From Lonsdalea britannica (lineage in GTDB: Bacteria; Pseudomonadota; Gammaproteobacteria; Enterobacterales; Enterobacteriaceae): a stretch of DNA of 64,000 nucleotides. Below the pieces are notes generated by a model. That model did no database searches and was not told the origin of the DNA. It saw only the letters and a list, made by a program, of their open reading frames with translations. Position 1 is the first letter of the stretch, and every line of letters starts with the position of its first letter. The stretch lies in the NCBI RefSeq assembly GCF_002111595.1, contig NZ_LUTN01000006.1, forward strand, positions 124,001 to 188,000, written 5' to 3'. Of the stretch, positions 3 to 42,699 are shown piece by piece. A program made the translations under genes and the position numbers.

Positions 3-800
3 GGCTGCGCCGCCGACCCGTTCGATCCTATTCTGCCGCTGCGCACGATGGGCGACCGTCCACCGCTGTTCTGCTTCCATCCCGGCGGCGGGATTGGCTG
101 GGCGTTTGCCGGTCTGCTGCCTTATCTGCCGGACGACCAGCCGGTCTACGCGTTGCAGTCGCCGATCCTCCAGGATCCGACGCGAGTCATTCATTCCATA
201 GATGAAATGGCGGTCGAATATCTGCGACGGATCCGGACGATCTGGCCGCACGGCCCGTATCAACTGGCCGGGTGGTCGGTGGGCGGCAACGTCGCGCTCC
301 GTGTGGCTAATCTGCTACAGGCGGCGGGTGAGGAGGTGAGTTTCCTGACGATGTTCGACAGTTATCCGCTGCAAAACGGGAGAGACTCGCTGAAACTGGA
401 TGACGAGACCATCATTACGCGGATGACCCGAGCTATCTGCGGCGCGGCGAGGGGCGGGATGAAAGGCTTGAAGAGCGCGATGGAAGAGGCGCTCGGCGAT
501 CGCAGCATTCGCGAAACTTTCCTGACGCGTCTGATCGGCGATGCCTCGCTGATGCTGGACCTGCTGGAGAAATGTCGCTATCAACCGTTCCATGGCGACC
601 TGCTCTTTATTCGCGCCTCGACCGATGTGTTGAGATCGCAGGAGCAACAGCCGGATCTCTGGTGCCCGTACGTCACGGGAAAACTGATCCAGTACGATGT
701 GGATGCGACCCATGAGTGCCTGATGCAACGTCAGTACCTGCAACAATTCGGGCGTCAGTTCGCCGACGAGCTGTTAAAACGTCAGAACTGCACTGCCTGA
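3..800 (+). CDS. Non-ribosomal peptide synthetase, C-terminal thioesterase domain (5' end outside window)
   Basis: The reading frame is open from the left edge and ends in TGA at 798-800, so this is the 3' end of a larger gene. The frame runs through a linker of the type DPFDPILPLR and then a type I thioesterase: oxyanion region FCFHPGGG, nucleophile motif GWSVGG (serine codon near 276), an acidic residue in the TMFDSYPL segment, and a late DATHE histidine. Such domains follow the last carrier protein of NRPS lines and release the product by hydrolysis or cyclisation. The ATG at 48 is internal to the frame and lies in the linker, so it is not the true start. The product is unknown because the adenylation domains are outside the window. 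Confidence 0.88.
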   Translation, partial: GCAADPFDPILPLRTMGDRPPLFCFHPGGGIGWAFAGLLPYLPDDQPVYALQSPILQDPTRVIHSIDEMAVEYLRRIRTIWPHGPYQLAGWSVGGNVALRVANLLQAAGEEVSFLTMFDSYPLQNGRDSLKLDDETIITRMTRAICGAARGGMKGLKSAMEEALGDRSIRETFLTRLIGDASLMLDLLEKCRYQPFHGDLLFIRASTDVLRSQEQQPDLWCPYVTGKLIQYDVDATHECLMQRQYLQQFGRQFADELLKRQNCTA

Positions 801-1156: not shown

Positions 1157-2164
1157 TCAGTGATAACCCGCATCCGGTTTAATTTTTCCCCGGAAGACGT
1201 AATAACTCCAGAAGGTATAGATCAAAATGATCGGGATGATGACCAGCGCGCCGACCAGCATAAAGCGCTGGCTCTGCGGCGGCGCGGCGGCATCCCACAG
1301 GGTAATGGACGGGGGAATGAGATGCGGCCAGATACTGATGCCGAGTCCGCTAAAGCCGAGAAAGATCAGCCCCAGCGTGAGTAAAAACGGCGCGTAGTGC
1401 GCGTGTCCTTTCACTGCGCGGACAATCCCCCATGAACAGGCCAGCACCAGCAAGGGAACCGGCAGGAAGTAGAGCAGATTCGGCATGACAAACCAGCGTT
1501 CGGCGATCGCGTGATGCTCCAGCGGCGTCCACAGGCTGATAATGGCGATGATGACCAGTAGCGCGGCTACCAGCGGCGTCGCCAGCGCGGACATTTTACG
1601 ATGCAGCTCATGCTCCGTTTTCATAATCAGCCACGTACAGCCAAGCAACGCATAGGCGACGACCAGACCGACGCCGCAGAACAGCGGAAACGGCGCCAGC
1701 CAACCTAACGCCGGACCGCTGTAGGCGCGTTCCGTGACGGCGAATCCGTCGAGGAATGCGCCGACGGCGACCCCTTGACTGAAGGTCGCGAGCAGGGAGC
1801 CTGCGATAAACGATTTATCCCAGAAAGGGCGGTGAGCGGGGGTGGCCTTAAAGCGAAACTCAAAGGCGACGCCGCGAAAGATGAGTCCGATCAGCATAGC
1901 CGTCAATGGGATGGCAAGCGCATCGATAATCACGGCGTAGGCGAGTGGAAAAGCGCCAAACAGCGCCGCGCCGCCCAGCACTAGCCACGTTTCGTTACCG
2001 TCCCACACCGGGGCGACCGTGTTGACCATCATGTCGCGCTCGCCGGCATCCTGATTAAAGGGAAACAGAATACCAATGCCGAGATCGAAGCCGTCCATCA
2101 CGATGTACATCAGGGTGGCGAACACAATAATGGCGAACCAGATAAATGGAAGATCGATAACCAC
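1157..2164 (-). CDS. cioB: Cytochrome bd-type (cyanide-insensitive) quinol oxidase subunit II
   Basis: The 335-residue protein is the CydB/CioB subunit, an integral inner-membrane partner of subunit I in an oxidase that passes electrons from quinol to oxygen. It opens with the family signature around MYIVMDGFDLGIGIL, then VWDGNETWLVLGG, and has about eight or nine hydrophobic helices; FWSYYVFRGK lies near the C-terminus. CydB of E. coli is about 379 residues and CioB proteins about 335, so length favours the Cio branch. The start ATG is separated by one base from the cioA stop codon, and the DUF2474 gene follows, making a three-gene operon. Confidence 0.93.
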   Translation of the reverse strand: MVIDLPFIWFAIIVFATLMYIVMDGFDLGIGILFPFNQDAGERDMMVNTVAPVWDGNETWLVLGGAALFGAFPLAYAVIIDALAIPLTAMLIGLIFRGVAFEFRFKATPAHRPFWDKSFIAGSLLATFSQGVAVGAFLDGFAVTERAYSGPALGWLAPFPLFCGVGLVVAYALLGCTWLIMKTEHELHRKMSALATPLVAALLVIIAIISLWTPLEHHAIAERWFVMPNLLYFLPVPLLVLACSWGIVRAVKGHAHYAPFLLTLGLIFLGFSGLGISIWPHLIPPSITLWDAAAPPQSQRFMLVGALVIIPIILIYTFWSYYVFRGKIKPDAGYH

Positions 2165-2165
2165 G

Positions 2166-3587
2166 CTATTTCTCCTCTTCGGACGTTAACGGTTCACGAC
2201 TGGCCGACAACGGCCTTGACGGCGTTTGCGGTTTGCCCGGTCCGCCTTCCGGCGTATGAGTGCCTTCACCCGGCTGCGGCCCTTTTTTGATCAGGTGCAT
2301 CATGTAGACGTAGCCGATGCCGAAGACTGAGCAATAGACCGCGATAAAGGCGAGCAGACTGATGCTCATATGCAGATCGCCGTGCGCGGATACCGCCGCC
2401 GAGGTGCGCTGGAGACCGTAGACTACCCACGGCTGACGCCCGATCTCCGTGGTAAACCAACCCGCAAGAATGGCGAGCAGTCCCGAAGGCCCCATCAGCA
2501 ACGTAAACCAGAGAAAAGGACGCGACTGATAAAGACGGCGTTTAACGCGTAGCCACAGGCTAATCACCCCCAGCAGGATCATCAGCAGGCCCAGCGCCAC
2601 CATGATCCGGAACGACCAGAAAATTACCGTGGAATTGGGGCGATCCGCTTTGGGAAAGCTTTTTAACGCCGGTACTTGTTTGTCCAGGCTGTGCGTCAAA
2701 ATCAGGCTGCCCAGATAGGGGATTTCCAGCGTATATTTCGTGCGCTCTTCGTTCATGTCCGGCAGGCCGAACAGGATCAGCGGGGTGGCTTCGCCCGCCT
2801 GATTTTCCCAGTGGCCCTCGATGGCGGCGATCTTGGCAGGCTGATATTCCAGGGTGTTGAGACCGTGCATATCGCCCAGCATCGCCTGAATCGGCGCGAC
2901 GATCAGCGCCATCCACAGCGCCATCGACAACATAGTGCGGATGGCCGGGGTATCGTTGCGGCGCAGCAGATGCCACGCGGCCGAAGCGCCGACGAAAAAG
3001 GCGGTGGAGAGGAAGGCCGCCGTGGTCATATGCAGCAGCCGGTAAGGGAAGGACGGATTGAAGATGACCGCAAACCAGTCGACCGGTACGACGACGGTAT
3101 TAATGATCTGGTATCCCTGCGGCGTATGCATCCAACTGTTCGACGCCAGTATCCAGAACGTGGACATCAGCGTCCCCAGCGCCACCATGCAGGTGGCGAA
3201 AAAGTGCAGCCCCGGTCCGACGCGGTTCCAACCGAACAGCATCACGCCAAGGAAACCGGCCTCCAGGAAAAAGGCCGTCAGCACCTCATAGGTCAGCAAC
3301 GGGCCGGTAATACTGCCCGCATATTCGGAAAAACCGCTCCAGTTGGTGCCGAACTGATAGGCCATCACCAGCCCGGAGACCACCCCCATCCCGAAGTTGA
3401 CGGCGAAGACTTTCGACCAAAAGTGGTAGAGATCGCGATAGTCCTCGTTGCGGGTTTTGAGCCATAGCGCTTCCAGCACGGCCAGGAAGCTGGCCAAACC
3501 GATAGTGATGGCGGGGAAAATAATGTGAAAAGATACCGTGAACGCGAACTGTATCCTTGCAAGATGAAATGCATCTAATCCAAACAT
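2166..3587 (-). CDS. cioA: Cytochrome bd-type (cyanide-insensitive) quinol oxidase subunit I
   Basis: The haem-bearing subunit I. I chose ATG at 3587 (MFGLDAFHLARIQF) because AAGAGGCGAG lies just upstream and homologues begin here; the longer frame to 3659 adds an unsupported tail. The first segment contains the conserved haem-ligand histidine (about H21, in SFHIIFPA). The GRQPW motif and a following VYGLQRT segment typify the short Q-loop CioA branch, and 473 residues is shorter than CydA (522). Cio oxidases resist cyanide and related respiratory poisons. Placement beside an NRPS gene could mean self-protection, but nothing here proves it. The C-terminus carries a Pro/Gly-rich polar tail. 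Confidence 0.93.
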   Translation of the reverse strand: MFGLDAFHLARIQFAFTVSFHIIFPAITIGLASFLAVLEALWLKTRNEDYRDLYHFWSKVFAVNFGMGVVSGLVMAYQFGTNWSGFSEYAGSITGPLLTYEVLTAFFLEAGFLGVMLFGWNRVGPGLHFFATCMVALGTLMSTFWILASNSWMHTPQGYQIINTVVVPVDWFAVIFNPSFPYRLLHMTTAAFLSTAFFVGASAAWHLLRRNDTPAIRTMLSMALWMALIVAPIQAMLGDMHGLNTLEYQPAKIAAIEGHWENQAGEATPLILFGLPDMNEERTKYTLEIPYLGSLILTHSLDKQVPALKSFPKADRPNSTVIFWSFRIMVALGLLMILLGVISLWLRVKRRLYQSRPFLWFTLLMGPSGLLAILAGWFTTEIGRQPWVVYGLQRTSAAVSAHGDLHMSISLLAFIAVYCSVFGIGYVYMMHLIKKGPQPGEGTHTPEGGPGKPQTPSRPLSASREPLTSEEEK

Positions 3588-3833
3588 GTCTCGCCTCTTA
3601 CTGAATGAACATCTCCACTTCCCCCCTCTGGCCTGCGGTTTGTCCGTGAATATCCGCACAAACTGAAAGGGATGAGGGAGGGATAGCCTAATCTTAGGTC
3701 GGATTTGCCTATCCCGAGAGGGAAGTGTCTAAATACCCGTTTCAACGGTGGTATTCCATGAGCGGTAAACAAAGGCGAGGACGTGTGCGGTCAGGAAAAT
3801 CGAAGCAAGTCCTGACCGGCGTGAGGCAAAAAG

Positions 3834-4541
3834 CTAGCGTAGAAAACGGCAGCACTCCAGATCTATATTGGGCACAATGGCGCCAGGCGAGAGAGACAGC
3901 AGCAACTGGACACAGTTCACCACATCGTCAGTCTGAATTTTGTCCTCCGCCATGACACCAGGAAAATCGCGTGTCATATCCGTGTCGACAAAGGCGGGGT
4001 TGATGTTGGAGACCTTGATGTTATACGGCAGCAGATCCAGCATCAGTGATTCGGAAAAGCCAAGCAGCGCATGTTTAGAGGCGCTGTAAGCGCCAATGCC
4101 GGGCAACGCTCTTCGCGCCGAGTTGCTGATGATATTAAAGATGTAGCCTGCCCGTTTTTTTTTCATGGCAGGCAGCACTGCCTGGATAAGCTGAACCGGC
4201 GCAAGAAAATTGATGGCGGTCAGTTCTGCCAACTGCGTAGGCGTGATCGCCTCGGTCCCGCCGTGAAATATTCCCGCGTTATTAATAAATACTTCAATAT
4301 TAGGTTCGTTCTCGAGCCTTCGGCAGAGTGAAGTCACTTCCTCGCTATCCGACAAGTCCGCTTCGTGCAGTGTGATGCGACATGTCGGAGACAGACTTTC
4401 CCATTCGCGCTGTAACCGTTGACCGGCTTCGCGGTTTCGTACTATCGCGATGAGGTCATACTTCCCTTGCCGGATAAAGCGGGTCGCCAGCGTTTTCCCA
4501 ATCCCGCGCGACGCGCCAGTGATGACAATGGATGAAGTCAT
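3834..4541 (-). CDS. Short-chain dehydrogenase/reductase of the biosynthetic locus
   Basis: A classical SDR of 235 residues, likely an NAD(P)(H)-dependent ketone or alcohol oxidoreductase. It shows the Rossmann motif TGASRGIG, the NNAG motif, and an active-site YSASK (Tyr and Lys three apart). Start ATG 4541 is chosen because GGAGGT precedes it and because it overlaps the stop of the upstream cupin gene as ATGA, which indicates translational coupling; the frame extending to 4643 would overlap that gene by about 100 bases. It is last in a three-gene unit (epimerase, cupin, SDR). In bacilysin-type pathways, SDRs (BacC, BacG) act on the dihydro-hydroxyphenylpyruvate product, and a similar role here is only inference. 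Confidence 0.85.
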   Translation of the reverse strand: MTSSIVITGASRGIGKTLATRFIRQGKYDLIAIVRNREAGQRLQREWESLSPTCRITLHEADLSDSEEVTSLCRRLENEPNIEVFINNAGIFHGGTEAITPTQLAELTAINFLAPVQLIQAVLPAMKKKRAGYIFNIISNSARRALPGIGAYSASKHALLGFSESLMLDLLPYNIKVSNINPAFVDTDMTRDFPGVMAEDKIQTDDVVNCVQLLLSLSPGAIVPNIDLECCRFLR

Positions 4542-5053
4542 GAACGACCTCCGTAGCTGTAACGCTGTATCCAGGATTGCAGTTGAGGAAATGCGGCCAG
4601 CAAATCGTCCTGCTGTGCGATGACGGAATCGAAGATCTCCCATCCAGGGAACACGACCTCGCTGACTAACCCGTATTCGGCATCGGCTGAGAGTTCTGTC
4701 GATTTCCAGACGCCGCCATCGGCTATCAGTTGCAACGTCTGTCCCTGTTCAATATCAGGACCCAGAATATGCTCTTCGGTCGTGCCGTTAGGGTGGATAA
4801 AACGATAAGTTAACGGTCCTCCTGAGTGATAAAAATGCATGATCGGCGATAAATTTTTGTGGAAGTAACCGATAGGACTCTCTTTGGTCAGAAGATAGTA
4901 GATGCAGGTCGACAGGTGTCTTAGGCCATCATTGTGTTCCCGGAGGGTCTTTATCCGCTCCTGACTGCGGTACGTCTCATTAAAGTAGCCGCCTTCGTCA
5001 TGTTTTTTCAGCGACAGCTTTTGAATCAGCATTTTCGTGGTCATAGTGGACAT
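4538..5053 (-). CDS. Cupin_5 (DUF985) family protein
   Basis: A 171-residue single-domain cupin. The N-terminus has the Cupin_5 pattern HDEGGYFNETYRS, followed by IYYLLTKESPIGYFHKN, HFYHSGGPL and GWEIFD segments. This family lacks the full metal-binding cupin motif set and has no well-fixed biochemical role. The start has AGGAG 7 bases ahead. The gene sits 14 bases after the epimerase gene and overlaps the SDR start by four bases. Cupins act as isomerases in bacilysin synthesis (BacB), but that is a different, double-domain cupin, so the analogy is loose. Confidence 0.75.
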   Translation of the reverse strand: MSTMTTKMLIQKLSLKKHDEGGYFNETYRSQERIKTLREHNDGLRHLSTCIYYLLTKESPIGYFHKNLSPIMHFYHSGGPLTYRFIHPNGTTEEHILGPDIEQGQTLQLIADGGVWKSTELSADAEYGLVSEVVFPGWEIFDSVIAQQDDLLAAFPQLQSWIQRYSYGGRS

Positions 5054-5067
5054 GGCTGTTCTCCTGG

Positions 5068-6090
5068 TTAGCGCGCATGTAGCTGTCGTGTATTGGTCGA
5101 AGCCGCATCTAGCGGATAAGGCATGTCTTTAAATACCTGCTCGTGGTAAGGATGCCACCCGATGGTCTCAGCCAGAGCGCTGCGGAACGGGCGATTGCGC
5201 GCCAGGCAGTCAAGGGCATACGAGAATGTGTATTTGGGTTTCCAGTTCAGCAGCCGGACAGCTTTTTGGTTGACGTACACCCGGTCGATACGATCAAACA
5301 AGCGCCAGCCCAGCGAGTCATAGATATCGCGATAATGAGGGAACAATAAGCCGACGACCGCGTCCGCATCTTGATTGAGGCGCAGACAGTGCTCTTTGTT
5401 GAACGGGGTGCTGCTGCTTAGGATAAACGTGTCGAAGTGAGCCTTGGGCTGGTAGGTGAGGGCTGCGGCCAAATGGGCATTCACCGCATCTTCGATATCC
5501 ACTCGCCGATATAACAATTCATTGACTTTGGCGTTGTCGTTGCAAAAGGTGTTGCGGACGTCGGGATTATCATCATCTTCATAGAAAAATCGAGAGACTC
5601 TGAGTACAACGCAGTTGAGCCGATAATTCCGAGAGAAAATGCGGCAGAGTTCTTCAGCGCCGAGCTTAGTCACTCCGTAGATGTTTTTGCTCAGGATCCG
5701 TTCGCTTTCATCGATCCAACTGGCGGGCGAATGGGCTTCCGGTGACAGAGTGTCGCCATACACGCTAGTCGTGCTAGAGAAAATAAATGATTTAACGTGA
5801 TGGTTTTTGGCGCTTTGTAATAAATTATAAGTCCCTAAAGTATTGGTTTCGATAAATTCGCTGTGGGGGTGAGTCGCAATATGTGGCTTATGGAGTGCCG
5901 CAGTATGAAAAACGATGTCTACGTCTTTCATGCACCGGTCAATTAACGATTTATCTGTGATGTCACCGATGATATCGGTATTTTCGGATTGGCGCTTATC
6001 AAATCCAATAACGTTAAATCCTCGTTCTTTGCATTTAATTGATAAGGCTGCACCAAGATTTCCGCTACTTCCTGTAATTAAAATATTCAT
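5068..6090 (-). CDS. NAD-dependent epimerase/dehydratase family protein
   Basis: An extended SDR of 340 residues. The N-terminus carries the nucleotide-binding GxxGxxG motif (TGSSGNLG), followed by DITD, HTAALHKPH and the catalytic YGVTK (Tyr and Lys three apart). ATG at 6090 with GAGG upstream is preferred over the 36-codon extension toward 6198, which has unrelated AT-rich composition. Family members act on nucleotide sugars or on other carbonyl substrates. As first gene of the epimerase-cupin-SDR unit, and next to the chorismate-derived cluster, its substrate may be a cyclohexadienyl or sugar compound; this is not decidable from sequence. The coding sequence is more AT-rich than the SDR downstream. 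Confidence 0.82.
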   Translation of the reverse strand: MNILITGSSGNLGAALSIKCKERGFNVIGFDKRQSENTDIIGDITDKSLIDRCMKDVDIVFHTAALHKPHIATHPHSEFIETNTLGTYNLLQSAKNHHVKSFIFSSTTSVYGDTLSPEAHSPASWIDESERILSKNIYGVTKLGAEELCRIFSRNYRLNCVVLRVSRFFYEDDDNPDVRNTFCNDNAKVNELLYRRVDIEDAVNAHLAAALTYQPKAHFDTFILSSSTPFNKEHCLRLNQDADAVVGLLFPHYRDIYDSLGWRLFDRIDRVYVNQKAVRLLNWKPKYTFSYALDCLARNRPFRSALAETIGWHPYHEQVFKDMPYPLDAASTNTRQLHAR

Positions 6091-6800
6091 GCTTAACCTC
6101 AATTTTATTCTCGATAGATATCTATGAGTGATGTCTTGAAATAAGCAGTATTTCAAGATGGTAAAAATGAAGGCGTAATAAAGAGTTGATGCAGACAAGG
6201 GCGCGTGGCCAGCCCTTCTAATGTCAATAAATTTATCTTATGGCTGATTCTTATTTTATGGGTATCAGATTTATCTGAATGAATGCAACGGGATCAATTG
6301 CTGGCAAGGCTTCAATAGTGCTTCAAAAGGGGCGTTACCAGCTCTTTGTCTCTGGGTGTGAGGTTAAATGCGGAGAGTGTAAGAATAGGATAAACGTGAG
6401 TGGAATTTAAAGGTCTTGTTATCAGCTAATAAATAAAGTTTATGTGAAATAGGTATATTAAATTGATAAAAAATAAAATAACGTTTTCAATTTAAGGAGC
6501 GGAGCGGTCGAGTGCTGGGTTCTATTTTTTATTAATATATATTTGCGGATTTCATTCGACCAGTGCGATGGCGTAGTGATTAGGCACCGATATCTCCTTA
6601 TGTCTTTGTTGCCTTCTACATAACCCATTATATTCACAACACAGTACTTTGGGCCTGAGAATGCCATAAGAAATCATCGGCGGGCGAGGGAATAACTTCG
6701 GAGACAGCATGCCCACGATTTATCCGTCTCAAGGACGGTAATCTTACATCTGAACGTGTCAGTGCTGTTTAACGGTATACCGCTCGCGTGAGTTCTGTGG
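6091..6800. other. AT-rich non-coding interval, promoter region for the epimerase unit
   Basis: About 710 bases without a convincing gene between the MFS gene stop and the epimerase start, both on the minus strand. It is clearly more AT-rich than its flanks (especially 6420-6540). A 69-codon frame at 6458-6667 has no ribosome binding site and no recognisable motif. The interval most likely holds the promoter of the three-gene epimerase unit and the 3' end of the MFS operon. Confidence 0.6.
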
Positions 6801-7988
6801 TCAGGGGGGCTTACGCATCACAACTCCCGTGGGGATAAGCGCCAGGATCCCGATGACGCCTGCAATCAGCGCCAGCATAGAAACCCCACTTTGCGAAATG
6901 ATCACCCCGCCCATTCCGCTTCCGACGCCAATGCCGATATAGATAACAGAGCTATTGAGCGCCAGCACCTGCTGGGACGCCGCGCCTGCGAGTCCCAGCA
7001 GCCGGTGTTGAATGGGAACCAGATACATATAGCTGACGATGCCCCATCCTGCGCCGATCGCGAGCGCCGCGACGGCGGACTCCCGCAGCAGGACCAGAGC
7101 GATAAGCCCGGCGGTTTGCAGGACGATGACGCTGCTGAGAACGCTGGCGGGGCCGCAACGATCGGTCAACAGCCCTGTGGCGATATTGCCGATCACCGAG
7201 CCGATGCCGTAGGCCATCAGCACCAGTGGCAACACCGGCATATCGCCAAGCCGCGTATTGGCCAGTATTACGCTGATGTAGGCGTAAACGATGAACTCCG
7301 ATGTGACGACCAGCAATGTGACGCAGAACAGCCCCCAAATGGCGGGCGGAAAACGGCGCGATTTCTGGGTGACGCATAAGGTGGTGGGGTCAGGCCGGGA
7401 AGCGCGGTGTTCCAACAGGATGAATAGCAGGGCTAGCGCGACAAGGCCGAAGAATACGACGCAGTAAAACGCCCAGCGCCAGTTCAGGGCGTGCGAAATC
7501 CAGGTGGTCAGCGGCACGCCCAGCGCCTGCGACATTGTCATGCCGCCGAAGATCAGCGCCAATGCGACGCCTTTGCGTCCCGAAGGCATGCGCTGGGCGG
7601 CCAATGTGGTCGCGGTCGGCGTAAACATGGCGGCGCCGTAGGCAGACACAACGCGCCCTGCAATCAGGACGTTGAAGGTTGGACTGAGGGCGCTCAAACC
7701 ATTGCCCGCGATAAAACACACCAGAGAGAGCAGCAGCACCCGCTGAGGCGGCCACGAGCGGAACCACCAGGCATTGAACGGTGCAAAGGCGGCGTAACAG
7801 AATGCGGAAATGGACACCAGCCTGCCGGCCGTTGCGGGAGAGACTGCCAGATCCTTCGCCATTTCGTGCAGCGCGCCGATGACGACGAACGTGTCCAGAC
7901 CGATGGCGAACGCGCTCAGGGTTAATGCCTGCGGCAGCAGCCGAACGCGCATAGCGTCGCCGGAATGCGCGTGAGAGTCAGGAGACAT
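6801..7988 (-). CDS. MFS transporter (DHA1-type drug/metabolite exporter)
   Basis: A 395-residue protein with about 12 hydrophobic helices and features of the AraJ/CmlA-like DHA1 branch: a first helix around FAIGLDTFVVIGAL, the loop SPATAGRLVS, and the first-half conserved AAQRMPSGRKGVAL segment. It overlaps the preceding BacA-like gene by 11 bases, so it is co-translated with the biosynthetic genes. Bacilysin clusters carry an MFS self-protection exporter (BacE), and export or self-resistance is the natural role here. Substrate is unknown. Confidence 0.85.
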   Translation of the reverse strand: MSPDSHAHSGDAMRVRLLPQALTLSAFAIGLDTFVVIGALHEMAKDLAVSPATAGRLVSISAFCYAAFAPFNAWWFRSWPPQRVLLLSLVCFIAGNGLSALSPTFNVLIAGRVVSAYGAAMFTPTATTLAAQRMPSGRKGVALALIFGGMTMSQALGVPLTTWISHALNWRWAFYCVVFFGLVALALLFILLEHRASRPDPTTLCVTQKSRRFPPAIWGLFCVTLLVVTSEFIVYAYISVILANTRLGDMPVLPLVLMAYGIGSVIGNIATGLLTDRCGPASVLSSVIVLQTAGLIALVLLRESAVAALAIGAGWGIVSYMYLVPIQHRLLGLAGAASQQVLALNSSVIYIGIGVGSGMGGVIISQSGVSMLALIAGVIGILALIPTGVVMRKPP

Positions 7989-8562
7989 GCGGCGACGCGT
8001 TCAGTTCGGGATACGGCATGGCGATTATCGATCCCCGATAGCGCGGCCGCGGACCGTAAAGCAACCACGTCGTGACCACCTCGCCTAAGGTTTCCAACAG
8101 TTCGATACAATCGGGATTCTCGGTAGCGACAAAGGTGTAGGCCAGTCCTGCGTCGTACTCGCCGGTCAGCAGTTTCGCCGCCACCACCGGTTTGGACGTT
8201 TCGAGAATAATTTCATTCCAGTCTTCGGGATTGATATAGCCGAGTGTCGGTTCCGGTAGGGCCAAATGGCGCGGGTGTTCGACGTCGCGGCGCTTGAGCA
8301 ACGCCAGGGGTTGAGTGGGGAAAATAAATGTATCCACGACCGGAAGTCGTTCGCGAAAGCGCTCAGTGACTATATGCACCTGATGATGAGCGCTGCACTG
8401 TAGCAGGTAGGCATCGCCATCATCGACGGCCTGCTGGCCTGCGGCGACGAGATCGTCGACCAGGATGATCTCCGCCTCGGTCACGTTCTGGTAACGCAGA
8501 TAGTTACGGAGGGCATTTTCATGGCAGGTGCCGGTGGGTCCCAGCGTGTAAATACGTATCAT
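7978..8562 (-). CDS. BacA-like protein of the prephenate dehydratase/decarboxylase fold
   Basis: The 194-residue protein starts with YTLGPTGTCHENAL, the N-terminal signature of the prephenate dehydratase fold. It lacks the TRF catalytic motif of true PheA-type dehydratases (the corresponding region reads YTFVATENPD) and has no ACT domain. Size and these losses match BacA, AerD and SalX, which remove CO2 from prephenate without aromatising the ring to give a dihydro-hydroxyphenylpyruvate. AGGGAA precedes the ATG. Its neighbours make aminodeoxychorismate and a mutase product, so the substrate could be 4-amino-4-deoxyprephenate rather than prephenate. That substrate is inference. Confidence 0.72.
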   Translation of the reverse strand: MIRIYTLGPTGTCHENALRNYLRYQNVTEAEIILVDDLVAAGQQAVDDGDAYLLQCSAHHQVHIVTERFRERLPVVDTFIFPTQPLALLKRRDVEHPRHLALPEPTLGYINPEDWNEIILETSKPVVAAKLLTGEYDAGLAYTFVATENPDCIELLETLGEVVTTWLLYGPRPRYRGSIIAMPYPELNASPHVS

Positions 8563-8740
8563 ATTTCAAGCTTCCCTGTGGTGGCGCAAGGCGTTCAGGC
8601 TTTGATTATGGTGTCTTCCAGCCTGCACGCTTCATCAATGATGCGTTCGTAGAGTGCGACCGCAAATTCGGGGTCGAGCCCATGACGGGCTGCCCGCTCT
8701 GCACAGCGCTGTTTCACGGCGTCTACCCGTCCCGGTTGCA

Positions 8741-11898
<3,158 letters not shown>

Positions 11899-12525
11899 TC
11901 AAGCCGTCCTTGTGTTGAATTGTTTTTGGGGCTGAGGAGAGGCTATGGCGTCGCAAAGAAAGTTGCTGAAGATTTCACGGCCATACTCCGAGCATATGGA
12001 TTCCGGGTGGAACTGGACGCCCCAGTGAGGAAGGATGCGGTGGCGTAGCGCCATGACGATCCCGTCTTCCGTCTCTGCGATGAGTTCCAGCGCGCTTGGC
12101 AAGGCGCTGTCGGCCACCAGAGAGTGGTATCGCGTGACGTCGAAAGTTTCGGGGATGCCTCGGAACAATGGGGTGCCGTAATGATGGACGCGCCGAATGC
12201 GGCCGTGCATAGGCTCTGGCGCTGCGATGACGCGGCCGCCGTGATGCAACGTGAGGCATTGGTGACCGAGACAGACGCCGAGCACCGGTACCTCGGCATA
12301 CGACAGTATGTCCATTGAGCTGCCGACATCTCGTCGCTGATACGGCGTGCCGGGGCCGGGGGAAAGGATGATACGATCATGGGGGATTTTATGAATTTCA
12401 CGCCAGGAGACGGTGTTTGGCAATACAATAGCCTCTTGCCCATTCACCTCGCCGATCATTTGCGCAATATTAAACGTGAAACTGTCGAAGTTATCGATAA
12501 TTAGAATGTTTTTCTGATGAAGCAT
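11899..12525 (-). CDS. pabA: Aminodeoxychorismate synthase component II (glutamine amidotransferase)
   Basis: A class I glutamine amidotransferase of 208 residues of the PabA/TrpG type: DNFDSFTFN at the start, LSPGPGTP, nucleophile Cys in GVCLGHQ, and the His-Glu pair in FHPES. ATG 12525 is preferred over 12540 since AGGA lies 8 bases upstream of it and homologues begin at this point. It supplies ammonia from glutamine to the adjacent PabB. The pabB ATG follows the stop codon with no gap, indicating coupled translation. It is the first gene of the operon running down to the MFS exporter. This copy is likely pathway-specific rather than the folate pabA. Confidence 0.9.
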   Translation of the reverse strand: MLHQKNILIIDNFDSFTFNIAQMIGEVNGQEAIVLPNTVSWREIHKIPHDRIILSPGPGTPYQRRDVGSSMDILSYAEVPVLGVCLGHQCLTLHHGGRVIAAPEPMHGRIRRVHHYGTPLFRGIPETFDVTRYHSLVADSALPSALELIAETEDGIVMALRHRILPHWGVQFHPESICSEYGREIFSNFLCDAIASPQPQKQFNTRTA

Positions 12526-13449
12526 CGAATATTCCTCCATGAAGATAGGAAAGGCTTGCTATCAGTTTGGACAGACTAGCTCCGCGCTGTTTGCCTAAGA
12601 CGGTCCGTATTAGGTTCGTCTTATTCTAAATGATGGGCTTTAAAAGTGATGTGATGCCAAATTTTTATTCTTGAATAAATCATTCGTGATTTTTACCCAT
12701 CTCCAGATGGCTTAATTACCTTACCACTTTTGTTTTGTCTTTTTGCATTATTTCTCAACTGTGCTGGAAATAATTTTTTTTGACATGGTATGGGAATCAA
12801 CAAGCTTCCATTAAAAAGTGTTTTTCCTGTTGATTTTCTTTTAAATTTCTTATTTATAGTTATTTTTTATTATGTAAGGAATGAGGATTTTTCTAGAATA
12901 TAAGTCAGTTTTATTGTTCGGTATAGATATCCTATGTGTAAAAATAATCCGGAAAACAGAATGTTATTAATTGCTGATAAAAAAGAATAATTATTATGTC
13001 TGTATCATTTCTTTCGTCATGGATAGAGATATTCGGTGAGCAGGTTATCGGGAAGGAATATTATAAAAAAGATTAGATAAAACAATGCCCGTCGAGAGCG
13101 TTGATTATTCATATTTGGTTTTTTATCGATTAATTTATCTTGCTCAGGGGAGAACACATCGTGATATTAGTCCCCTTTTTTTTCTTAAAAAAAGCTGTTT
13201 CTTCTTTATAAAACTGAAAGCGGCATAGTCTCGGAATATGGGTGAATAGGCGGGAGTTAAAATATGCAGCCCAAAGGGCTTACTCATTGAAAATGATTCG
13301 ATAGTCGATGCTGAGTAAGAAATGGAGGTCTGGCATAAACGAAAAGAGAGATCCCTGTTCGCTGGACGAGTCCAAGCCGGGATAACACGTCAATAAGTCG
13401 TTGAGTCATGAGCTGGAGAGCGTGGCTGAAGCCGTTTCAGCGGAGGTAT

Positions 13450-13470
13450 GTCAACCCTCGCAGGGTTGAC
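13450..13470. repeat. Perfect inverted repeat
   Basis: GTCAACCCT, three bases, then AGGGTTGAC. The 9-bp arms are perfect. There is no T run after it, so it is not a typical terminator; it might be a protein-binding site or an mRNA hairpin. Confidence 0.5.
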
Positions 13471-13502
13471 GCTACACAAAGGCTGCTGGCGCGATAGAGA
13501 TA

Positions 13503-13522
13503 GCGCCCGATATTTTCGGGCG
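13503..13522 (-). terminator. Hairpin downstream of the exported-protein gene
   Basis: The minus strand forms an 8-bp GC-rich stem (CGCCCGAA region with TTCGGGCG) about 26 bases after the stop at 13549. The T-rich tail is weak, so confidence is moderate. Confidence 0.5.
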
Positions 13523-13548
13523 TTAATGAACGTTGTCTTGCTGTGCCG

Positions 13549-14085
13549 TCAGCGATTTTCCAGTCCGGCTTCTTGGCGTTTGGCGCGAATTTCGGCTTCA
13601 TTGTGGTGAATATAGTCACCCAGTTGCTCTAATCCTGCGCGTACCTTCTGCAATTCGGCGGCGTGCCGGGCCTTTGGCGTCACGGGGTTGGGGTGGGATG
13701 CGTCCCACGCCAGCGCCTGCTGAATAGAGGCATACCAGTTTTTGGGCGAGCCTCCGGCCCATTCGTTGATGGTCTGGCCCAGCGTAGCGTTGAGAGAAGC
13801 CATTAGCGCAGGCTCGCCGTCTGCCGGAAGGTTGGGGTTCGCCAGCAAATAGTAGCGAAAGCGCAGTTGACCGATGTAGAACCAGGTGACGGCTTTATCT
13901 CGGTCACCGGCTTCATAGAGCCGCTGGGCATACTGATAAAGTTCACTGGGATGGGCCTTCGCGAGCTGAGCGTCGGTCTCTGACTCAGCGGCGACGAGTA
14001 TGGGATTGATCTCAGCGGCGAACGACGGGGGGCAGACACTGGCGGACAGCGCCGTCAAGAACAGTAAGGTGCGAATCCGATTCAT
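13549..14085 (-). CDS. Exported protein of unknown function
   Basis: A 178-residue protein with a clear signal peptide (MNRIRTLLFLTALSAS, cleavage probably after the SFA segment). ATG 14085 is supported by AGGAG upstream; the longer frame to 14196 runs into the preceding ORF. The mature part has the helical repeat-like stretch HPSELYQYAQRLYEAGDRDK followed by AVTWFYIGQLRFRYYL, reminiscent of a TPR/Sel1-type helix pair, then INEWAGG and a charged C-terminus. I do not recognise the family. Proteins of this look are frequent beside contact-dependent toxin loci, but no toxin is visible here. Confidence 0.7.
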   Translation of the reverse strand: MNRIRTLLFLTALSASVCPPSFAAEINPILVAAESETDAQLAKAHPSELYQYAQRLYEAGDRDKAVTWFYIGQLRFRYYLLANPNLPADGEPALMASLNATLGQTINEWAGGSPKNWYASIQQALAWDASHPNPVTPKARHAAELQKVRAGLEQLGDYIHHNEAEIRAKRQEAGLENR

Positions 14086-14096
14086 GGAAACTCCTG

Positions 14097-14441
14097 TCAG
14101 CGCCGAATCGGCGGGGTAATTGTTATGGGCACGCGTCGGGACCTGACGCGGTAGCAATGCTGACTGAACAGTAGCAGAATTCCGTAAAAGGCACACGAGC
14201 GAGCTTCATCAATATCGATGCCCCAACCAATTAGTACCTCGAGTTTGACGCCACGTGACGTCCCGCCGATGAACAGTATGGCGATATTGGCTGCGTCTTG
14301 TGATGTCAGCTTGCAGGGCCGTGAGCAGGCGATGATCGACCCCGACAATACCTGCTTAACGCGATTGACGGGTTTCCCATTTATTCTCCGCGATCCTTCG
14401 ACTCCGCTGGAACCACTGATGGCACCCAGAAGGGAAAACAT
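14097..14441 (-). CDS. Small hypothetical protein, coupled to the LysR gene
   Basis: A 114-residue frame whose ATG overlaps the LysR stop as TGATG, and which ends 12 bases before the exported-protein gene. The sequence starts with a Gly/Ser-rich stretch (LLGAISGSSGVEGSR), has two hydrophobic patches and several Cys residues, and ends in a basic region. No family is recognised. The tight spacing favours a real gene, but the composition also allows a decayed remnant of a longer gene. Confidence 0.4.
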   Translation of the reverse strand: MFSLLGAISGSSGVEGSRRINGKPVNRVKQVLSGSIIACSRPCKLTSQDAANIAILFIGGTSRGVKLEVLIGWGIDIDEARSCAFYGILLLFSQHCYRVRSRRVPITITPPIRR

Positions 14442-15325
14442 CAGGTGACGTTATGGCACTCCTTGATCAGCTGAATGAAGTAGTGCAGCTCTTCCTCCTT
14501 TCGCTTTAAATAATAAATATGCGACATCTCAGCGGGCTGGTTAAGAAAAAGAGGCCGAGTCGCCAGGGGAATGTTCCGGGAGATTTCAAAGTTCATAAAA
14601 GAAGAGCAAGAGAAGGAATAACCTTTCCCGGCAGCGAGATATTCGACGACATGCGAGAAGTCGGGGAAAACATGGACTCTGGCGCGGGTATTTTCCATTC
14701 TGCGGTGCTGGATGGTTTTTTCCAGAATAGGGTGAGACAACATCGACGAGTGGGCGACGAGATCTTCATTCACGATCAGGGTCATGACATTTTCATATTT
14801 ATCAATCACTTTTTGAGCACTAATGAGTGTACAGCTGTTGTTCATGAGCGGAATACAGGCAATACGTTCAAGATTATCCACGTATTTCGGGGAGGAGGAG
14901 ATGAAGAAGTCGATCTCTTCCGATAACAGCTTGTTTTTGAACTCGGCATAGGAATGTTGCATGCAGAAAAGGTCGATACCTTTCTTGATTGAGTTCGAAA
15001 AAATGATTTTATAGAAACTGTCGTTGTAGGTATCCGTACCGATTTTCAGCTCACGAAAAAATTTGGTGTTTTTGGTGATCAGCTTGGTGATATTTTCGAG
15101 GTTCTCCCTGACGGGCAGCAGCTGTTGATAAAAGAAATCGCCTTCTTTCGTCAAGTTTATCCCTGAATTGGAACGATTAAATAGCCGGTATCCGAGAGAG
15201 TTTTCGAGATCGCCGATACTCTTACTGAGTGCGGGAGGTGTTACATGAATGCGTTCCGCTGCAGCTTTAAATGAGCCTAATTCCGATATGACGATAAAAT
15301 GCTCAACTTTTTTTGAAAAAATCAT
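14441..15325 (-). CDS. LysR-type transcriptional regulator
   Basis: A 294-residue LTTR. The winged helix at residues 5-65 includes GSFKAAAERIHVTPPALSKSI with the usual NRSNSGINLTKEG wing. The remaining 220 residues form an effector-binding domain, rich in Lys, Ser and Phe and rather divergent. The gene is markedly more AT-rich than its neighbours, suggesting horizontal origin. It is transcribed ahead of two small genes and lies about 2 kb upstream of the pabA operon on the same strand, so it could regulate either. Target unknown. Confidence 0.88.
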   Translation of the reverse strand: MIFSKKVEHFIVISELGSFKAAAERIHVTPPALSKSIGDLENSLGYRLFNRSNSGINLTKEGDFFYQQLLPVRENLENITKLITKNTKFFRELKIGTDTYNDSFYKIIFSNSIKKGIDLFCMQHSYAEFKNKLLSEEIDFFISSSPKYVDNLERIACIPLMNNSCTLISAQKVIDKYENVMTLIVNEDLVAHSSMLSHPILEKTIQHRRMENTRARVHVFPDFSHVVEYLAAGKGYSFSCSSFMNFEISRNIPLATRPLFLNQPAEMSHIYYLKRKEEELHYFIQLIKECHNVT

Positions 15326-40015: not shown

Positions 40016-42699
40016 ATGTCAACACAACATCGCACTGCCTGCATGGAAACGCTGACCGCGGGTCAGCACACCTATCATTTCTTTAGTCTGGCGTTGGCCG
40101 CCGATCGTTGGGGCAACATTGACGCCTTGCCCAAGTCCCTGAAAGTGTTATTCGAAAATGTTCTGCGATTCTACGACGGCGATAGCGTCGGTGATGACGA
40201 TCTGCGTGCGCTGGTCGCGTGGCAAGTCAGCACCCACGGCGATCGAGAAATCGCCTACCGACCTGCACGTGTGCTGATGCAGGACTTCACCGGCGTACCC
40301 GCCGTGGTTGATTTGGCGGCGATGCGGGATGCCGTGCGTCGGCTCGGTGGCGATGTCGACAAGGTTAATCCGCAAGCCCGGTCGATTTGGTGATCGACCA
40401 TTCGGTGACGGTAGACCACTTCGGCGAACAAAACGCGCTGGAGGAGAATACGCGACTCGAAATGATGCGTAATCATGAGCGCTATGCGTTTCTGCGATGG
40501 GGGCAGAAAGCCTTCCGCCACTTCAGCGTGGTGCCGCCTGGCACCGGCATCTGTCATCAGGTGAATCTGGAGTATTTGGCGAAAACCGTCTGGTTTGAAC
40601 AGGATGGGGAGCAGCGAATCGCCTATCCGGATACCTTGGTCGGTACTGATTCTCATACGACGATGGTGAATGGTTTGGGCGTATTGGGCTGGGGCGTCGG
40701 AGGCATTGAGGCTGAGGCGGCGATGCTGGGTCAGCCCATCTCCATGCTGATCCCGGACGTTGTCGGATTCAAGCTGACGGGACGAATGCGCGAAGGCATC
40801 ACCGCGACCGATTTGGTGCTGACGGTGACCCAGATGCTGCGCAAACACGGCGTGGTCGGCAAATTCGTGGAGTTTTACGGTGATGGTTTAGCCCATTTGC
40901 CGCTGGCCGATCGGGCGACGCTGGGCAACATGGCGCCAGAGTATGGGGCGACCTGCGGCTTTTTCCCCGTCGATGAAGTGACCCTGGATTACCTGCGCCT
41001 GACCAACCGCAGCGAAGAGCAGATTGCGCTGGTGGAAAGCTACTCCAAGCGTCAGGGGCTCTGGCGCAATCCGGGGGATGAACCTCGTTTTTCCAGCCAG
41101 CTTGAGCTGGATATGGGCATGGTGGAAACCAGTCTGGCCGGTCCTAAACGACCTCAGGACCGGGTTGCATTGGCGGATGTGCCTGCGGCTTTTCAGGCCA
41201 GTCGGGAGCTGGATCTGAATACCAACCCGCCGTCGCAGAGCGTCGCGCCGACGTTCAAATTGGCTGGTGAAACGCATGCGCTGCGGGAAGGCGCTGTCGT
41301 CATCGCGGCCATCACTTCTTGCACTAATACCTCTAACCCGAATGTGTTGATGACGGCGGGCTTGCTGGCACGCAATGCCGTGGCGCGCGGACTGCGGACT
41401 CGTCCGTGGGTGAAAACCTCACTCGCGCCCGGTTCTCGGGTGGTGACGGAATATCTGGCTCGCGCCGGGCTCACCGAGGCGTTGGACCGTCTGGGCTTTA
41501 ATCTGGTGGGGTACGGCTGCACTACCTGTATCGGTAACTCCGGGCCACTGCCTGCGCCGGTTGAAGCGGCGATTCGGCAAGGTGACTTGACCGTCGGCGC
41601 CGTGCTGTCCGGCAACCGCAACTTTGAGGGGCGCATTCACCCCTTGGTAAAAACGAACTGGCTGGCGTCTCCGCCGCTAGTGGTGGCCTACGCGCTGGCG
41701 GGCAATATGACGGTAGATCTGAGCCGCGATCCGCTGGGCGAGGATGACCAGGGCCAGCCGGTTTATCTGCGCGATATCTGGCCTTCTGCAAAAGAAGTCG
41801 CTGACGCGGTGCAAATGGTCAGTAGCGATATGTTTCGTCGCGAGTACGCCGAAGTCTTTTCGGGAACGGCGGAGTGGCAGGGGATCGCGGTCGGCAACGA
41901 ACCGACTTATCGCTGGCCGGCGGACTCGACCTACATCCGTCAAACGCCGTTTTTCAATACGATGCAGATCGTGCCGGAGCCGGTCAAAGACATTCACAAC
42001 GCCAGAATCCTTGCCATTTTGGGCGACTCCGTCACGACCGACCACATTTCTCCTGCGGGAAATATCAAAGCTGACAGCCCGGCGGGCCGCTATTTGCAGG
42101 CGAATGGCGTGGAGCCAGACGCGTTCAACTCCTATGGCTCTCGTCGTGGAAATCATGAAGTGATGATGCGCGGGACGTTCGCCAACATTCGTATTCGCAA
42201 TGAAATGGTCCCAGGCAAGGAAGGGGGTTATACGCGACATATTCCCTCGCAGGACGTCCTGGCGATTTACGATGCCGCGATGCGCTATCAGCAGGATCAG
42301 GTGCCGTTGGCCGTGATCGCGGGCAAGGAGTACGGCTCGGGGTCGAGCAGAGACTGGGCCGCGAAAGGACCGTGCCTGCTGGGCGTTCGCGTCGTCATTG
42401 CCGAAACGTTCGAGCGTATTCACCGTTCCAACCTGATTGGCATGGGGATTCTCCCTTTGGAATTTCCGGTAGGCGTCACTCGCAAAACGCTGGGACTGAA
42501 CGGGGGAGAGCGTATCGATATTGCTGGACTGACCGATTTGCAACCCGGCAGTACGGTGGCGGTGACGATCGTATCCGACGAGGGAGAAACGCAAACGGTA
42601 AATACCCACTGCCGGATTGATACCGGAAACGAGCTGACCTACTACCGTCACGGCGGAATTTTGCATTATGTCATCCGCAATATGCTAAACGACAAGTGA
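40016..42699 (+). pseudogene. acnA: Aconitate hydratase A, one frame break
   Basis: The first 120 codons are in one frame (to [11 protein letters not shown] and stop at 40393), the other 774 in another ([14 protein letters not shown] onward). Adding one base at 40373-40375 joins them through [15 protein letters not shown], the expected sequence, giving 894 residues (E. coli AcnA 891). The 4Fe-4S ligands are present in [11 protein letters not shown] and [10 protein letters not shown]; the swivel domain has [16 protein letters not shown]. AcnA interconverts citrate and isocitrate and acts under oxidative stress. A frame break in such a conserved gene points to a sequencing deletion. Confidence 0.93.

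What the first reader, a model, noticed from the sequence alone, without database searches (positions are those of the whole stretch)
6801..12525. Possible new pathway: aminodeoxychorismate synthase, mutase and BacA-like decarboxylase in one operon
PabA (GVCLGHQ) and PabB (PIKGT lysine) should make 4-amino-4-deoxychorismate. The stand-alone AroQ mutase corresponds to PapB and would give 4-amino-4-deoxyprephenate. The next gene is not a PapC-type dehydrogenase but a BacA-like protein without the TRF motif of dehydratases. BacA-type enzymes decarboxylate prephenate without aromatising it. Together this predicts a 4-amino-dihydrophenylpyruvate, that is, an amino version of the bacilysin precursor, which I do not know from described pathways. 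An MFS exporter closes the operon.
Basis: partly seen in the sequence, partly recalled or inferred. Interest (0 to 1): 0.85.

Follow-up and report, generated by a model that had tools for sequence, protein, structure and literature searches.

The report
Portable amiclenomycin-ring cassette in Lonsdalea
A bacterium of the genus Lonsdalea carries, next to a predicted exporter gene, the same five enzyme families in the same order that open what is very likely the stravidin antibiotic operon of Streptomyces; they are predicted to build the reactive amino-cyclohexadiene ring of amiclenomycin, and in this assembly the gene for the likely first enzyme reads as interrupted.

The parts
11899..12540 (-). 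PabA-type glutamine amidotransferase, first gene of the cassette
   Evidence: PF00117 E 1e-47; TIGR00566 over cut-off; GVCLGHQ
11221..11898 (-). PabB, N-terminal piece (frame ends here)
   Evidence: PF04715 E 1e-17; 76% identical to L. quercina L002
10664..11140 (-). PabB, middle piece in another frame; carries PIKGT
   Evidence: PF00425 E 3e-46; 94% identical to L002
9898..10704 (-). PabB C-terminal piece continuing into a GNAT acetyltransferase domain (about 9928-10419)
   Evidence: PF00425, PF13508, PF00583; GNAT stretch; one fused frame in L002, L003, L006, L008
8741..9901 (-). histone-deacetylase/acetylpolyamine-amidohydrolase family protein; overlaps the PabB-GNAT stop; its frame also runs on into the mutase gene
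   Evidence: PF00850 E 2e-46; motifs PPGHHA, DIDHHVGNG, GFDIIEGDPHG; start read
8595..8861 (-). AroQ-type (amino)chorismate mutase
   Evidence: PF01817 E 1.5e-22; TIGR01803 81.1 bits, cut-off 73.35
7978..8562 (-). 194-residue prephenate-dehydratase-fold protein, predicted non-aromatising decarboxylase
6801..7988 (-). MFS protein, predicted exporter
   Evidence: PF07690 E 2.7e-38; best NCBIfam row is Cmx/CmrA chloramphenicol efflux, 168 bits, cut-off 400; a homologue of at least 48% identity, or a remnant of it, adjoins the 194-residue gene in 13 of 13 proteobacterial loci

Best explanation
This operon carries, in the same order, the five enzyme families that open what is very likely the stravidin operon of Streptomyces, and it is predicted to make the amino-cyclohexadiene ring of amiclenomycin and would likely export the product. 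Inferred steps: PabA/PabB would turn chorismate into 4-amino-4-deoxychorismate; the GNAT domain fused to PabB would acetylate the ring amine; the mutase would give (N-acetyl-)4-amino-4-deoxyprephenate; the 194-residue dehydratase-fold protein would remove the ring carboxyl without aromatisation, leaving a 3-(4-amino-2,5-cyclohexadienyl)pyruvate, which a housekeeping aminotransferase could turn into the alanine (a nor-amiclenomycin, since no chain-extension genes lie nearby). The deacetylase would later uncap the amine, which in amiclenomycin attacks PLP aminotransferases such as BioA. Capping would protect the producer's own PLP enzymes. The neighbouring NRPS genes may build the amino acid into a peptide. 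Shown here: gene content, order, predicted fold, motifs, distribution. In this assembly PabB is interrupted, so this strain may not make the product.
For: Same families and order in G730 (L088 10591-14924) and G733 (L092). In L088, identities to the window's proteins are PabA 47%, PabB middle piece 56%, GNAT part 33%, deacetylase 36%, mutase 49%, 194-residue protein 44%. Both contigs have two avidin-family genes, 36 and 48 kb apart; PMC13336041 reports about 36 kb for S. avidinii, with the operon staA-staN between. In G730 the cassette is followed by HMGL/HCS, methyltransferase, FemAB-like, aconitase-type, isopropylmalate-dehydrogenase-type and class IV aminotransferase genes. G730 has one PF00800 match, on another contig, so the 194-residue homologue is the only dehydratase-fold candidate I see in that operon. 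Fold. In 28 homologues 35 columns are invariant, T164-T165-W166 included; in the 30 rows T164 and W166 are invariant and T165 nearly so. PIKGT stands in 18 of 18 loci that hold that part of PabB. In the cyanobacterial locus the GNAT is fused to a class IV aminotransferase, which fits capping before transamination. A stravidin with N-acetyl-amiclenomycin has been isolated (PMC13336041); stravidins inhibit BioA (PMC13111796).
Against: No step has been assayed here, and the paper that proposed the stravidin route could not be read. Local profile comparison with dehydratases aligns only the first 25-54 columns and the global one fails (probability 0.3); the TRF/TTW match rests on one multiple alignment, and its 29 dehydratases (of 39) had been picked by a pattern that asks for TRF. 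The chain-extension genes are absent around the cassette, so the product should not be amiclenomycin itself. Three of 17 cassettes, all Solirubrobacterales, have no deacetylase. PabB is broken here.
Confidence: 0.72

Rival explanations
1. A pap-like route: the dehydratase-fold protein aromatises 4-amino-4-deoxyprephenate, giving phenylpyruvate (with loss of the amine) or an aminophenylpyruvate derivative, as precursor of an arylamine product.
For: PabA, PabB and an AroQ mutase are shared with pap operons (pap content recalled); the fold is that of prephenate dehydratase; the exporter's best NCBIfam row is chloramphenicol efflux, below its cut-off.
Against: No prephenate-dehydrogenase (PapC) match among the cassette ORFs; TTW where dehydratases have TRF; the same cassette stands in the likely stravidin operon, whose product keeps a non-aromatic ring (ring recalled).
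Confidence: 0.12
2. A dying acquired cluster: the genes came to Lonsdalea by transfer and no longer make anything in this strain. (This can hold together with the best explanation of the intact cassette.)
For: PabB in three pieces and two frames; 8 of 13 proteobacterial loci have at least one cassette gene split between frames or truncated, 3 of 5 Lonsdalea genomes among them, each by a different lesion; the 194-residue gene is in 1 of 123 genera among 147 genomes; cassette GC 0.595 against 0.538 for the rest of the window.
Against: Both L. quercina loci read without a break; frame changes in draft assemblies can be sequencing errors.
Confidence: 0.5
3. The acetyltransferase/deacetylase pair is self-resistance to the finished compound rather than capping of pathway intermediates.
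For: Acetyl capping of toxic amines as self-resistance is known for other antibiotics (recalled); N-acetyl-amiclenomycin occurs in a stravidin.
Against: The GNAT is fused to PabB in L. quercina, Bradyrhizobium L006 and Stappia and to an aminotransferase in the cyanobacterium, which points to action during synthesis.
Confidence: 0.3

Closest known systems
Stravidin (amiclenomycin) operon staA-staN of the streptavidin BGC nexus in Streptomyces
   Different: Lonsdalea has PabA and PabB apart, PabB fused to GNAT, an MFS gene next to the 194-residue gene, and no HCS, isopropylmalate-dehydrogenase-type, class IV aminotransferase or FemAB-like gene in the window; avidin genes were not looked for in Lonsdalea
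Prephenate dehydratase (PF00800)
   Different: No PF00800 match, too short for an added ACT domain, TTW instead of TRF
BacA/AerD/SalX prephenate decarboxylases
   Same: Stand-alone catalytic domain of about 200 residues without TRF (the BacA side is recalled)
   Different: Predicted substrate carries an amine in place of the hydroxyl; no direct sequence comparison was possible
pap operons (p-aminophenylalanine; content recalled)
   Same: PabA, PabB and AroQ mutase
   Different: No PapC dehydrogenase among the cassette ORFs; GNAT, deacetylase and 194-residue protein added

Membership tests
Stravidin/amiclenomycin ring module | Aminodeoxychorismate synthase with the PIKGT lysine | tested here: met
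   PIKGT in the window and in 18 of 18 loci holding that part of PabB; the window's PabB frame is interrupted
Stravidin/amiclenomycin ring module | GNAT, HDAC-type protein, AroQ mutase and 194-residue family in the same order | tested here: met
Stravidin/amiclenomycin pathway (complete) | Chain extension (HCS, aconitase, IPMDH) and class IV aminotransferase next to the ring genes | tested here: not met
   tblastn (E <= 1e-5) of ten proteins of the Streptomyces region: in the window only a 28% aconitase match at 40609-41634; the rest of the Lonsdalea genome was not searched
Stravidin/amiclenomycin pathway (complete) | Streptavidin genes flanking | not tested
   no avidin search was run on Lonsdalea
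Stravidin/amiclenomycin pathway (complete) | Production of amiclenomycin or a homologue | not testable with these tools
   needs metabolite analysis
Prephenate dehydratase PF00800 | Pfam profile match | tested here: not met
   no match for the window, L025, L028 or L088 homologues
Prephenate dehydratase PF00800 | TRF motif | tested here: not met
   TTW in 28 of 28 homologues, opposite TRF in the joint alignment (the 29 dehydratases were picked by a TRF pattern)
Prephenate dehydratase PF00800 | Catalytic-domain fold | tested here: met
   predicted model
BacA/AerD/SalX prephenate decarboxylases | Sequence grouping with BacA/AerD/SalX | not tested
   no such sequence could be fetched; second PF00800 matches in G218, G222 and G285 were weak or fragments, and those in G304 and Stappia G148 were not examined
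pap operon | PapC-type dehydrogenase | tested here: not met
   no such Pfam match among the cassette ORFs
Dickeya vfm locus | Shared genes | tested here: inconclusive

The most novel reading that the evidence does not exclude
A mobile ring-making module, so far tied to Streptomyces stravidins, has been plugged into different assembly lines across phyla (NRPS in Bradyrhizobium and Lonsdalea, PKS-NRPS in Stappia, an arginyl-tRNA-synthetase-like gene in Solirubrobacterales) and yields a hidden family of amino-cyclohexadienyl antimetabolites of PLP enzymes. Its key enzyme is a new dehydratase-fold family that decarboxylates without aromatising, and its chemistry is made safe by acetylating the ring amine at the first committed enzyme and removing the cap at the end.
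Probability: 0.5. Interest if true: 0.78.

Novelty: new variant of a known kind. Interest (0 to 1): 0.62.

Why it matters
It names a five-gene signature for genome mining of amiclenomycin-type warheads outside Streptomyces: in rhizobia, a marine-type alphaproteobacterium, a cyanobacterium and Lonsdalea. It points to one uncharacterised protein family, without a Pfam match in the members scanned, as the presumptive non-aromatising decarboxylase. And it gives a testable reason (protection of PLP enzymes) for an acetyltransferase and a deacetylase in one operon.

Tried and rejected
BacA/AerD comparison: no BacA, AerD or SalX sequence could be reached. PF00800 rang in 233 of 244 genomes of the cyanobacterium's phylum; in five picked genomes the second matches were weak or fragments in three (G218, G222, G285), G304 had a second good match that I did not examine, and G730 had one match only. 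hhalign against 29 dehydratases aligned only the first 25 or 54 columns, and its global mode gave probability 0.3; 10 of 39 dehydratase loci had been dropped because my pattern asked for TRF. A sequence search of the PDB gave one unrelated weak row (E 0.32). The profile of the 194-residue family rang in 1 of 296 Actinomycetota genomes, the centre itself; avidin rang in 0 of 296. I fetched stretches of 5 of these 10: the cassette is in the two with paired avidin genes (G730, G733); no cassette match in the 20-39 kb taken from G842, G873 and G999; the other five were not looked at. The vfm idea was dropped for lack of support. No paper on this cassette outside Streptomyces appeared in the listings; the library holds open-licence papers only. 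Papers: passages of PMC9306890, PMC13336041 (sections 4 and 6), PMC13111796, one passage of PMC10698177; Montaser and Kelleher 2020 not held, used from recall.

Full report
WHAT IS THERE. The cassette genes lie on the minus strand in the order PabA (11899-12540), PabB (pieces 11221-11898, 10664-11140, 9898-10704), GNAT (same ORF as the last PabB piece), histone-deacetylase-family protein (ORF 8741-10102, probable start near 9901), AroQ mutase (8595-8861), 194-residue protein (7978-8562) and MFS protein (6801-7988). The genome is a Lonsdalea: the 194-residue gene rang in 5 of 147 genomes, all of one genus, and three of those places (G001, G003, G004) coincide with contig positions of records titled Lonsdalea quercina (two) and L. 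iberica.

THE SAME CASSETTE ELSEWHERE. One search examined 35 stretches (the window's first 24 kb and 34 loci; L004/L099 are one record, L028/L031 one contig). PabA, PabB, GNAT, mutase and the 194-residue protein are together in 17; two more records (L012, L004/L099) are cut by the contig end. In 15 of the 17 the 194-residue gene follows the mutase on the same strand; in L015 and L027 it lies nearby on the other strand. The deacetylase is in 14 of 17, in L007 in part (absent in L010, L014, L028). Hosts are Lonsdalea, Bradyrhizobium, Stappia, a Rhodobacteraceae MAG, Solirubrobacterales, Nostocales HT-58-2 and the two Streptomyces-like genomes. Ten loci from Actinomycetota records (L011, L013, L016-L018, L020-L024) hold a long copy of the 194-residue gene without the cassette, three of them (L016, L018, L023) with weak far PabA or GNAT hits; L029 holds a partial copy near a contig end. 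L019, L026, L030 and L031 hold partial sets. PabB and GNAT are one frame in both L. quercina loci (about 667 codons), Bradyrhizobium L006 (692 aa) and Stappia L008 (703 aa); in the cyanobacterium the GNAT is fused to a class IV aminotransferase instead. A homologue of the MFS gene (at least 48% identity), or a remnant, adjoins the 194-residue gene in 13 of 13 proteobacterial loci; elsewhere MFS hits are under 30% identity.

THE LINK TO STRAVIDINS. From memory, amiclenomycin carries a 4-amino-2,5-cyclohexadienyl ring, and its operon was proposed to start like the p-aminophenylalanine route and then decarboxylate without aromatising (Montaser and Kelleher 2020; not held). PMC13336041 (passages and sections 4 and 6 seen) places the operon staA-staN between two streptavidin genes about 36 kb apart in S. 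avidinii. I searched 392 genomes of the genus of G420, picked for its size, for avidin: 10 hits, two of them with a pair, 36 kb apart (G730) and 48 kb apart (G733). Of five of these ten genomes I fetched stretches. Between the pairs of G730 and G733 lies the cassette; the stretches of the three others have no match. In L088: PabAB 10591-12615, GNAT, deacetylase 13085-14020, mutase, 194-residue homologue 14337-14924. It is preceded by a class III aminotransferase (BioA-like by eye) and followed by HMGL/HCS, methyltransferase, FemAB-like, aconitase, isopropylmalate-dehydrogenase-type and class IV aminotransferase genes, a 452-residue protein without a Pfam match, and an MFS gene. G730 has one PF00800 match, on another contig, which leaves the 194-residue protein as the only dehydratase-fold candidate I can see for the decarboxylation. 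In the tree (midpoint root) the Streptomyces copies group with nine lone Actinomycetota copies (97/93), and the ten proteobacterial copies form their own branch (100/100).

HOW IT PROBABLY WORKS (inferred). Chorismate -> 4-amino-4-deoxychorismate -> mutase -> 4-amino-4-deoxyprephenate -> decarboxylation with the ring kept non-aromatic -> 3-(4-amino-2,5-cyclohexadienyl)pyruvate -> amino acid. The GNAT fused to the first committed enzyme, or to a PLP aminotransferase, suggests that the ring amine is capped early and that the zinc-type deacetylase (motifs; their meaning is recalled) removes the cap. Stravidins inhibit BioA (PMC13111796); the recalled mode of action, suicide aromatisation on PLP, explains why capping would be needed. 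PMC13336041 reports a stravidin with N-acetyl-amiclenomycin. Without chain-extension genes the Lonsdalea product should be one carbon shorter than amiclenomycin. Ten proteins of the Streptomyces region were searched against the window and the loci: the window gave one 28% aconitase match 28 kb from the cassette; L025 gave the class IV aminotransferase; L014 and four lone loci gave methyltransferase matches of 29-35%. The rest of the Lonsdalea genome was not searched for them.

ASSEMBLY-LINE NEIGHBOURS. In all five Lonsdalea genomes a C-A-T NRPS protein and a thioesterase (window 48-800) lie on the other side of a cytochrome bd pair. Stappia L008 has KS-KR-ACP, A-T, thioesterase and class V aminotransferase genes beside the cassette, and L009 has the first of these where its stretch ends. 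Bradyrhizobium L005 and L007 have NRPS genes about 4 kb beyond the MFS gene, L025 one about 7 kb beyond the 194-residue gene, L026 a weak match (23-26%); L006, L019, L030, L027 and L028 gave none at E <= 1e-10. Whether these are one pathway is untested.

DECAY AND TRANSFER. Of 13 distinct proteobacterial loci, 5 read in one frame per gene (L002, L003, L006, L008, L009) and 8 have a cassette gene split between frames or truncated: window PabB, L098 PabB at another place, L004 mutase, L005 PabB and deacetylase, L007 deacetylase, L019, L026, L030. Draft-assembly errors are not excluded, but G002 (L098) is one contig. The cassette's GC is 0.595 against 0.538 for the rest of the window, the gene is in 1 of 123 genera of relatives, and its closest relatives outside the genus are alphaproteobacterial: together these favour acquisition by transfer.

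VERDICT. It is a new variant of a known kind, interesting for its spread, the unnamed enzyme family and the cap-uncap logic.

Noticed in passing
window 48-800 and L097 14934-17999: A C-A-T NRPS protein followed by a separate thioesterase, conserved in the five Lonsdalea genomes close to the cassette but on the far side of a cytochrome bd oxidase pair; product unknown.
   Followed up: partly
window 1157-3659: A cytochrome bd-type oxidase pair sits between the NRPS/thioesterase and the cassette in the five Lonsdalea genomes; perhaps a respiratory self-protection pair, untested.
   Followed up: partly
window 3834-6198: SDR, DUF985 cupin and NAD-dependent epimerase genes follow the exporter; matched at this place in L003 and L004 (its SDR in two frames), not in L002 or L098.
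   Followed up: partly
L028 5346-7010, L027 7282-8961: An ORF of about 555 aa lies directly upstream of PabA in two Solirubrobacterales cassettes (overlapping it in L028); the L028 copy has a partial match to the arginyl-tRNA synthetase catalytic domain (PF00750 E 8.5e-07). The L027 copy looks alike by eye and was not scanned.
   Followed up: partly
L018 10655-11623, L017 8856-9902, L013 8822-9841: Lone copies of the 194-residue gene have a winged-helix-like regulator next to them; L018's matches HxlR (PF01638), the other two look alike by eye. Four lone loci (L016, L017, L023, L024) also have a methyltransferase near, 32-35% identical to the one of the Streptomyces operon.
   Followed up: no
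L027 1-1750: A partial copy of the 194-residue gene is followed by a cupin and an SDR gene, an order that recalls bacA-bacB-bacC of bacilysin (recalled).
   Followed up: no
window 8741-8861: In the window the deacetylase frame runs about 120 bases into the mutase gene, whereas in Bradyrhizobium L006 the deacetylase ORF ends near the mutase's probable start.
   Followed up: no
L025 14302-15417: A DAHP-synthase-like gene lies near the cyanobacterial cassette, as one does near the end of the stravidin-like region (L089 5784-7001), which would fit extra supply of chorismate (both assigned by eye).
   Followed up: no
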